Positions 20,473-48,834 of a DNA stretch of 64,000 bases are shown in pieces. A program made the translations under genes and the position numbers. Positions within the stretch are counted from its first letter, which is position 1. Every line of letters begins with the position of its first letter. A model generated the notes under the pieces. It did no database searches. It was given only the letters and a program-made list of their open reading frames with translations, and had not been told where the DNA came from. The DNA comes from Halococcoides cellulosivorans (GTDB lineage: Archaea > Halobacteriota > Halobacteria > Halobacteriales > Haloarculaceae): NCBI RefSeq assembly GCF_003058365.1, contig NZ_CP028858.1:1612001-1676000 (forward strand). The letters are read 5' to 3'.

Positions 20473-20592
20473 CATACGGCGAGCGGAGCGAGCCGTTTCA
20501 CTGAGCGCGAACGCAGTGAGCGCTCAGGTGTTTTTGGTCCAGATTTTTGCGAGGAGGGTTCGCGAAGCGAACCCTCCGACGTAAAAAGGTGG
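20473..20592 (-). repeat. Structured tRNA-flanking element, copy 1
   Basis: In the sense of the tRNA it begins about 5 bases after tRNA-Gln with CCACC and a T5 run (20583-20587). It contains a perfect 11-bp hairpin with triloop (20553-20563/20567-20577), the conserved stretch around TCTGGACCAAAAA, and an 8-bp hairpin CTGAGCGC/GCGCTCAG with loop GAACGCAGTGA (read on plus, 20501-20527). A GGC...GCC segment closes the far end. A second copy at 48546-48664 shares the backbone but has different stem sequences. Confidence 0.85.
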
Positions 20593-20597
20593 TCTAG

Positions 20598-20670
20598 TAG
20601 TCCCGGGAGGATTCGAACCTCCGTCGTTGCCCCCAGAAGGCAACAGGATTGGCCACTACCCCACGGGACT
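20598..20670 (-). tRNA. tRNA-Gln (CUG)
   Basis: A 73-base minus-strand cloverleaf: acceptor AGTCCCG/CGGGACT, T arm GGAGGTTCGAATCCTCC, anticodon stem TTGCC/GGCAA with loop TTCTGGG, anticodon CTG. CCA is not encoded and there is no intron. A TTTTGTAAC box lies about 20-30 bases upstream. A T5 run 10 bases downstream is a likely terminator. Confidence 0.93.
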
Positions 20671-29340: not shown

Positions 29341-29423
29341 GCGAGGGTAGCCAAGCGGCCAACGGCGGCGGGCTTAAGACCCGCTCCTGTAGAGGTCCCT
29401 GGGTTCAAATCCCAGCCCTCGCA
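29341..29423 (+). tRNA. tRNA-Leu (UAA)
   Basis: An 83-base cloverleaf with acceptor GCGAGGG/CCCTCGC, T arm CTGGGTTCAAATCCCAG, long variable arm, and anticodon stem GCGGG/CCCGC around loop CTTAAGA, anticodon TAA. The long variable arm is diagnostic for Leu. No intron or encoded CCA. CACTTTTGA about 30 bases upstream is TATA-like. Confidence 0.93.
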
Positions 29424-29843
29424 TAGCGAGGTCCGAACGGTGCGAGACGCGAACGGAGTGAGCGTCTCGATGTGAACGGGGAGTGAAGCGACCCGTGAAC
29501 GAAGTGAGGACCTCGACAAGACGAACGGCGAGCGACGCGAGACGCGAACGTAGTGAGCGTCTCGAAATGCGAGCGGCGGTAGCCGCGAGCGACGCGAGCC
29601 GTGAGTCTCGCACTGAGTGAAAGCCGGTGAGCAAGGCGAGATCGAGATGCGATCTCGGAATGCGAACGGCGGAGCCGTGAGCAGCGCGAACCGGCTGGAA
29701 CGAACTGAGCGTCTCGAAAACGACGAACAGTGCGAGATCACCGCCCAGTCCGCCGACGCGTTGGACGACGCCACGACGGTCCAGCGGGTCGCATCGTCGA
29801 TCCGTTGAGAAGACAGTCGACGCGCCAGACCTGGCCTGAAGAG
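29424..29843. repeat. Nested hairpin array downstream of tRNA-Leu
   Basis: These 420 bases hold no gene but many dyads. An outer stem CGAGGTCC/GGACCTCG (29427-29434/29508-29515) encloses an inner stem CGAGACGC/GCGTCTCG (29443-29450/29462-29469) with loop GAACGGAGTGA and a third ACGGG/CCCGT. The inner hairpin recurs at 29538-29564 with loop GAACGTAGTGA. Further dyads include GAGATCG/CGATCTC. Loops share GAACGNAGTGA. The section after 29760 shows nothing clear. Confidence 0.85.
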
Positions 29844-48545: not shown

Positions 48546-48664
48546 CATACGGCGGCCTTCGGCCGCCGTTTCACTGAGCGCGAACGCAGTGAGCGCTCAG
48601 GTCTTTTTGGTCCAGATTTTTCGAGGAGCGGTCGCCGAAGGCGACCCGACGACGAAAAAGGTGG
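48546..48664 (-). repeat. Structured tRNA-flanking element, copy 2
   Basis: It matches copy 1 in order: CCACC with T5, a triloop hairpin (48630-48636/48640-48646, GGTCGCC/GGCGACC), the TCTGGACCAAAAA stretch, CTGAGCGC/GCGCTCAG with loop GAACGCAGTGA (48574-48600), and a terminal dyad GGCGGCC/GGCCGCC (48551-48567). Stem sequences in the first and last hairpins differ from copy 1 yet stay complementary. Confidence 0.85.
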
Positions 48665-48668
48665 TTGA

Positions 48669-48728
48669 GCGGATTCGAACCGCGGTCACTCCGCGCTGAC
48701 GCGCTCCGTTCCCTGGTATCGAATCCGC
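48669..48728. repeat. tRNA T-arm-like sequence and its inverted copy
   Basis: GCGGATTCGAACCGC (48669-48683) repeats 15 bases of the tRNA-Val T arm (minus-strand sense) about 102 bases away. Its first 10 bases also recur inverted at 48719-48728 (TCGAATCCGC). This is a tRNA 3' fragment directly before the structured element, as expected for an attachment-site remnant. Confidence 0.5.
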
Positions 48729-48761
48729 CGGGCTTCCAGTTCGCTCCCTGCGGTCGCTCGA

Positions 48762-48834
48762 TGGGTCCGGGCGGATTCGAACCGCCGACCCCTTCCTTGT
48801 AAGGGAAGTGTCATAACCACTAGACCACGGACCC
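48762..48834 (-). tRNA. tRNA-Val (UAC)
   Basis: A 73-base minus-strand cloverleaf: acceptor GGGTCCG/CGGACCC, T arm GGCGGTTCGAATCCGCC, anticodon stem CTTCC/GGAAG with loop CTTACAA, anticodon TAC. No CCA or intron. The DUF192 gene starts 61 bases beyond its 5' end on the other strand. Confidence 0.93.

What the first reader, a model, noticed from the sequence alone, without database searches (positions are those of the whole stretch)
29427..29564. Hairpin family with constant GAACGNAGTGA loop, nested one inside another
Seen: loops GAACGGAGTGA (29451-29461), GAACGTAGTGA (29546-29556) and GAACGCAGTGA (20509-20519, 48582-48592) each sit between perfect 8-bp stems of differing sequence. After tRNA-Leu, outer stem CGAGGTCC/GGACCTCG encloses GAACGG...AAGTGA with a full hairpin inside. 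Inference: elements may insert into each other's loops. A constant loop with a free stem suggests a protein or RNA recognition motif.
Basis: partly seen in the sequence, partly recalled or inferred. Interest (0 to 1): 0.75.

Follow-up and report, generated by a model that had tools for sequence, protein, structure and literature searches.

The report
Nested hairpin modules at archaeal tRNAs
Salt-loving archaea carry a shared family of small hairpins with one fixed cap; next to tRNA genes they sit on short inserted modules that copy the end of the tRNA, which looks like an undescribed kind of small mobile or recombining DNA.

Summary
The 11-base "loop" is a folded cap: tandem G.A/A.G mismatches, two base pairs (AC/GT or GC/GC) and a GNA triloop, on freely varying, covarying stems. 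GAACGNAGTGA occurs 44 times in this 2.72-Mb genome against 1 for the reversed control. It was found in 292 of 292 genomes of the class, usually far above control, and near control in 118 genomes of other classes of the phylum. It concentrates 3' of tRNA genes. There it often caps fold-back modules: an inverted T-arm, hairpins, then a direct copy of that tRNA's own last 20-33 bases. In this genome 20 of 43 tRNAs carry such a copy. The T-arm mirror occurs in 170 of 292 class genomes and 0 of 189 others. Modules form arrays and differ between sister species; one comparison shows a clean 102-base insertion with an empty site. The window's nested case has un-nested relatives at the same tRNA. Mechanism is inferred: a single-strand-DNA-foldable recombination site is most likely; an RNA role and passive repeats remain open.

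The parts
29341..29423 (+). tRNA-Leu(TAA), the gene the hairpin cluster follows
   Evidence: ARAGORN, Rfam RF00005
29427..29515 (+). Nested element: outer stem CGAGGTCC/GGACCTCG, GAACG at 29435-29439, two inner hairpins, closing GAACGAAGTGA at 29497-29507
   Evidence: Sequence, fold; un-nested relatives at the same tRNA in L290 and L291
29443..29469 (+). Inner hairpin 1: CGAGACGC - GA AC GGA GT GA - GCGTCTCG
29474..29498 (+). Inner hairpin 2: GA-ACGGG-GA-GT-GAA-GC-GA-CCCGT-GA
29538..29564 (+). Second free-standing hairpin CGAGACGC - GAACGTAGTGA - GCGTCTCG
20476..20496 (+). Covariant relative ACGGC - GA GC GGA GC GA - GCCGT, antisense on the 3' side of tRNA-Gln
20501..20527 (+). Hairpin CTGAGCGC - GAACGCAGTGA - GCGCTCAG, antisense on the 3' side of tRNA-Gln (20597-20670, -)
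48574..48600 (+). Same hairpin as 20501-20527, on the 3' side of tRNA-Val (48762-48834, -)
48660..48761 (-). Fold-back module 3' of tRNA-Val(TAC): inverted T-arm, GA-rich apex, then a copy of the tRNA 3' end (18 of 24 bases) followed by TTTTT
   Evidence: 14 of the copy's first 16 bases paired; shuffled mean 7.7

Best explanation
SHOWN: Halobacteria share a strand-specific hairpin family whose cap is GA / 2 bp / GNA / 2 bp / GA on covarying stems. It concentrates 3' of tRNA genes. There it caps short modules that end in a direct copy of the tRNA's T-loop-to-3'-end segment, often mirrored by an inverted T-arm. Modules occur singly or in tandem and differ between congeners, with a clean empty site in one comparison. 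INFERRED: the cap makes one DNA strand fold into a very stable hairpin when single-stranded (GNA-loop DNA minihairpins are known to be extraordinarily stable). The folded fold-back is then used as a recombination or insertion site by a tyrosine-recombinase-like or repair activity that recognises the tRNA 3' end. Modules thereby enter tRNA 3' ends while keeping the tRNA intact, build arrays, and nest in one another's loops.
For: Cap and covariation: 76 GA/GA hairpins against 9 for the next mismatch pair apart from the mirror-strand TC/TC, in 233 kb of the own genome (loci partly chosen by the motif, but 51 remain without GAACGNAGTGA). In 60 ribH loci not chosen for hairpins, 31 against 8; in 20 other loci, 0. 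Stems are perfect over 5 bp in 26% of 237 distinct pairs against 0.4% when permuted. DNA-type cap: GNA triloops dominate and tetraloops are rare; GNA-loop DNA minihairpins reach Tm 78 C (PMC4686876, passages). tRNA-end copies: 20 of 43 tRNAs have the own last 14 bases at 13 or more of 14, against 0 of 1720 cross pairs. The copy pairs with the spacer in 19 of 20, mean 12.6 of 16 bases against 7.6 shuffled. T-arm mirror in 170 of 292 class genomes and 0 of 189 others. Insertion: G001 against G006 at tRNA-Glu(CTC), 102 nt with a direct repeat of about 24 nt; G001 against G006 at tRNA-Leu(TAA); arrays of varying number.
Against: No recombinase was identified. Ten proteins beside motif clusters away from annotated tRNAs gave no integrase or transposase in Pfam. 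Sense orientation is favoured 3' of tRNAs in the own genome, 27 to 12, which transcription-level selection would also give. Tandem copy-number change needs only homologous recombination between repeats. None of the 10 IMG/VR hits to the T-arm mirror looked like a haloarchaeal module. The tRNA-Leu(TAG) trailer hairpin is conserved across families, which suggests a lasting function rather than free mobility. Shuffled spacers often reach similar maximum pairing.
Confidence: 0.4

Rival explanations
1. RNA-level element: the hairpins are transcribed in tRNA trailers and 3' untranslated regions and act in 3'-end formation, termination, processing or protection, possibly by binding a protein.
For: Upstream feature on the same strand for 39 hairpins against 18 opposite (5 undetermined, 6 coding); own tRNA 3' flanks 27 sense to 12 antisense. 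One hairpin starts 2 nt after the cpn60 gene. Haloferax has hairpins just upstream of 503 of its 1,543 termination sites (PMC7237163, passages). RNA folding predicts the cap on the GA strand.
Against: Caps are GNA triloops, hardly ever RNA-type GNRA tetraloops. The motif often lies after a T-tract that should already end the tRNA transcript (strings; T>=4 within 20 nt in 6 of 20 own tRNAs with a copy). Antisense copies are common: 130 of 292 genomes. No significant G.T over A.C excess in stems on the larger sample, 12 to 7, p 0.18 (the first smaller count was 9 to 2). Does not explain tRNA-end copies or the clean insertion.
Confidence: 0.3
2. Passive palindromic repeats: REP-like debris that grows by template switching and unequal recombination at GARCG and T-arm microhomologies, without a dedicated enzyme or function.
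For: Near-identical tandem modules; composite repeats at other sites; nested copies bounded by GARCG repeats in some cases; very uneven copy number, 1 to 251 per genome.
Against: Present in 292 of 292 class genomes with the same cap. Stems of many sequences keep exact complementarity. The tRNA-Leu(TAG) trailer is conserved across families.
Confidence: 0.25
3. Chance or low-complexity artefact of GA-rich, GC-rich sequence.
For: Allowing one mismatch, the window count is not unusual.
Against: 44 against 1 reversed control; no hairpin with a stem of 7 bp or more in 60 simulations; covariation; absent or near control in other classes.
Confidence: 0.01

Closest known systems
Integron attC cassette arrays
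   Same: Strand-specific fold-back site with conserved end boxes and a variable apex; arrays of short units; insertion beside a non-palindromic target (attC features recalled, not from a call)
   Different: Ends are the tRNA T-arm (GGATTYGAACC/GGTTCRAATCC), whose GTTC does not fit the attC box GTTRRRY; the modules seen are too short for ordinary genes; no integron integrase found
tRNA attachment sites of tyrosine integrases
   Same: Direct repeat runs from the T-loop to the tRNA 3' end and the tRNA stays intact; tRNA genes as integration sites are reviewed in PMC8371274 (passages)
   Different: First copies lie only 64-242 nt from the tRNA, with no room for an integrase; about half of the tRNAs outside one cluster carry one; an inverted T-arm copy is added
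Bacterial REP/BIME palindromes
   Same: High-copy extragenic hairpins in clusters, often at gene 3' ends (REP features recalled)
   Different: The constant part is the cap, not the stem; tied to tRNA genes; RAYT partner not tested
K-turn / K-loop
   Same: Tandem sheared G.A pairs (recalled)
   Different: No three-base bulge; both sides are continuous helix
GNA-loop DNA minihairpins, d(GCGAAGC)
   Same: Same cap: two base pairs closed by C-G with a GNA loop (PMC4686876, passages)
   Different: There used as designed fragments; here a class-wide genomic family with tandem GA added

Membership tests
Integron attC / cassette array | R' box GTTRRRY and R'' box RYYYAAC (recalled) | tested here: not met
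   End boxes are GGTTCRAATCC and GGATTYGAACC; position 4 is C, not a purine
Integron attC / cassette array | IntI-type integrase next to the array | not tested
   Only ten proteins beside motif clusters away from annotated tRNAs were scanned; none was an integrase
tRNA-integrated element with att repeats | Direct repeat of the tRNA 3' part at both ends | tested here: met
   20 of 43 tRNAs; empty-site comparison
tRNA-integrated element with att repeats | Element encodes an integrase | tested here: not met
   First copies begin 64-242 nt after the tRNA
REP/BIME | Many extragenic palindromes per genome | tested here: met
   62 of 68 hairpins outside predicted coding regions, by a simple codon-model gene caller
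REP/BIME | RAYT (Y1) transposase partner | not tested
   No Y1 transposase search was made
K-turn | Three-base bulge next to tandem G.A | tested here: not met
   Stems directly abut GA on both sides
Rfam families | Match at the gathering score | tested here: not met
   Only the three tRNAs matched in the window

The most novel reading that the evidence does not exclude
Halobacteria carry an integron-like system without genes: tiny modules with a fold-back site built from the tRNA T-arm and capped by an extraordinarily stable DNA minihairpin. Recombination at tRNA 3' ends inserts them as arrays, restores the tRNA each time, and moves modules between tRNA genes that share a 3' end.
Probability: 0.25. 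Interest if true: 0.92.

Novelty: new variant of a known kind. Interest (0 to 1): 0.77.

Why it matters
If right, about half of the tRNA genes in a haloarchaeon are targets of a very small, gene-free insertion system, seen only in Halobacteria among the genomes searched. That would be a new way for genomes to grow structured DNA beside essential genes. It would also give a natural role to the extraordinarily stable GNA DNA minihairpin, and a ready model for palindrome origin and nesting. Even if the role is in RNA, a class-wide tRNA-trailer hairpin family with so clear a structure gave no Rfam match in the window and was not described in the papers my searches reached.

Tried and rejected
Chance or low complexity: rejected. 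K-turn: no bulge. Rfam family: none. Virus-borne modules: the IMG/VR scan gave 10 contigs; five (L347-L350, L354) are T-arm palindromes on contigs without a called tRNA, which I take, from recall of bacterial prophage att sites, to be bacterial prophages, and five (L346, L351-L353, L355) overlap called tRNA genes (L355 is also a clean palindrome, so its tRNA call may be false); none looks like a haloarchaeal module. Integrase beside motif clusters away from annotated tRNAs: none in ten proteins. G.T against A.C asymmetry as a test for strand-specific folding: 9 to 2 in the first count, 12 to 7 (p 0.18) with more loci and different rules; treated as inconclusive. Energy models do not decide between DNA and RNA: the DNA parameters leave the cap open on both strands, the RNA parameters pair it on the GA strand. 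Same-genus comparison: the genus holds only this genome here. A strict test for an inverted T-arm (9 or more of 11) is met in only 8 of 20; by folding, 19 of 20 copies pair with their spacer. The 39 T-arm-mirror strings printed are those orientable by the GA strand, out of 102 distinct strings counted in both orientations; 24 were ambiguous. For one search I set aside 20 of the 80 loci as outgroup, including two Marine Group IV and one ALOHA Halobacteriales MAG; none of the 20 had a hairpin. In the count of 43 tRNAs a 15-tRNA cluster (L057) was left out; two of its tRNAs also had a 3'-end match, at least one of them a neighbouring tRNA. The hairpins were not compared between strains of one species. 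Literature: the searches (listings, plus passages of five papers) showed no description of the modules or the motif; subscription papers are mostly missing from that library.

Full report
What is there. The window lies in a complete 2.72-Mb contig; as named relatives found with its ribH protein are mostly haloarchaea, I take it to be a haloarchaeon. GAACGNAGTGA occurs 44 times in the genome and the reversed pattern once. Of the 44, 25 have perfect stems of 5 bp or more; 5 have no stem at all.

Structure. The 11 bases read GA-AC-GNA-GT-GA: two G.A mismatches, A-T and C-G pairs, a three-base GNA loop. GAGCGNAGCGA is the covariant form. In 233 kb of this genome, scanning all dinucleotide mismatch pairs, GA/GA gave 76 hairpins (its mirror TC/TC likewise on the other strand) and the next pair 9; inner pairs were AC/GT 28, GC/GC 27, CC/GG 4 and others. 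Those loci were partly chosen by the motif; without GAACGNAGTGA, 51 remain. In 60 named haloarchaeal ribH loci, not chosen for hairpins, GA/GA again led with 31 against 8, in 19 of 60 genomes; 20 other archaeal loci had none. Stems vary and covary: among 237 distinct 5-base stem pairs 26% are fully complementary, 0.4% when partners are permuted, with 61 different perfect stems.

Spread. 292 of 292 genomes of the class hold the motif. Counts run from 1 to 251; typical values are 10-60 against 0-6 for control, but a few genomes (such as G195, G128, G013, G053) are not clearly above control. In 118 genomes of other classes of the phylum counts are near control, with slight excess in some (for example G400, G347, G385, G353).

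Place. 23 of 44 copies lie within 600 nt of a tRNA, a zone of 2.0% of the genome, touching 15 of 55 tRNAs (clustered copies are not independent, so its p value is too small). Twenty of 58 called tRNAs have a motif within 150 nt of their 3' end. Class-wide, a T-arm followed 12-42 nt later by the motif is found in 194 of 292 genomes in sense and 130 of 292 in antisense. Of 68 hairpins with stems of 5 bp or more, 39 follow a feature on their own strand, 18 one on the other, 5 have no called upstream feature, 6 lie in predicted coding sequence (a simple codon-model gene caller).

Modules. Reading trailers of tRNA-Leu genes from many families showed a second copy of the tRNA's 3' end roughly 60-230 nt downstream, preceded by an inverted T-arm (these loci were chosen by the motif). 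In this genome 20 of 43 tRNAs outside one 15-tRNA cluster have such a copy (18 or more of 24), 4 of them two or three. It is specific: 20 of 43 match their own last 14 bases at 13 or more, 0 of 1720 cross pairs do. The repeat block is mostly 20-33 nt, from about the T-loop to the discriminator base. The copy pairs with its spacer in 19 of 20, mean 12.6 of 16 bases against 7.6 for shuffled spacers, though single shuffles often reach similar values. The mirrored T-arm pattern occurs in 170 of 292 class genomes, never in its reversed control, and in 0 of 189 genomes of other classes. Interiors of the mirrors covary: 20 of 57 perfect over five bases, at most 8 in 300 permutations (orientation was chosen to favour pairing before both counts).

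Turnover. Two congeners, G001 and G006, differ at tRNA-Glu(CTC) by a clean 102-nt insertion with a direct repeat of about 24 nt of the tRNA end; the flank beyond is nearly identical. At tRNA-Leu(TAA) G001 has a module where G006 has none. Arrays of two or three near-identical modules occur in G034, G137 and G281. Of two other pairs aligned, G034 against G093 shows an extra tandem unit, while G137 against G281 shows two extra units by eye but did not align cleanly beyond the first. The tRNA-Leu(TAG) trailer TGAGCGAACGNAGTGAGCGA is conserved over several families with N free, a sign of lasting constraint.

Nesting. In G001 and G006 the window's tRNA-Leu(TAA) is followed (in G001 after one module) by CGAGGTC-GAACGCAGTGA-GACCTCG, un-nested; in the window the same hairpin holds 62-63 extra bases in its loop, followed by a second GAACG. 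A scan for stems enclosing split caps found 15 candidates against 0-8 for altered arms; about seven share the same two-hairpin insert, so a fixed three-way junction is an alternative to repeated insertion.

How it may work. GNA-loop DNA minihairpins with at least two G-C pairs are extraordinarily stable (GCGAAGC melts at 78 C) and resist nucleases (PMC4686876, passages read). The predominance of GNA over GNRA-type loops, common antisense copies, motifs behind T-tracts and the insertion evidence favour folding of single-stranded DNA and use as a recombination or insertion site. Sense bias (27 to 12 in own tRNA 3' flanks), a hairpin right after cpn60 and known hairpins near Haloferax termination sites (PMC7237163, passages) favour RNA. 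The stem mismatch test did not decide. No enzyme was found, and the mechanism stays an inference.

Known or new. Passages of PMC8371274 and PMC3119063 show tRNA genes as integration sites and partial tRNA duplications tied to prophages in a haloarchaeon; passages of PMC7230728 were not informative here. I saw no description of gene-free modules or of this cap.

Noticed in passing
L057 (G000:C1:2633660-2639226): A cluster of 13 tRNA genes by Rfam (15 by ARAGORN) in under 3 kb on one strand, unlike the scattered tRNAs elsewhere; may belong to a provirus or integrated element.
   Followed up: no
window 20501-20527, 48574-48600; L021 1493-1519: Three near-identical dispersed copies of one hairpin with flanks (CCGTTTCACTGAGCGC..GCGCTCAGGTNTTTTT), each followed by a T-run.
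   Followed up: partly
L347, L348, L349, L350, L354, L355: IMG/VR contigs with long near-perfect T-arm palindromes next to a tRNA-Met-like 3' end; a possible parallel in bacterial prophages (host group and tRNA identity recalled, not tested).
   Followed up: partly
L326, L327, L290, L291, L294: Several arrays end in a shared CCACTTTTTCC ... GGGGAAAAAG palindrome, perhaps a terminator.
   Followed up: no
G281: 251 copies of GAACGNAGTGA in one 4.3-Mb genome, against 44 here and 1 in G195; the cause of this spread is unknown.
   Followed up: no
L331-L333, L345: tRNA-Arg(CCT) trailers carry repeated units with the motif in antisense directly or soon after the tRNA end, and in sense further on.
   Followed up: no
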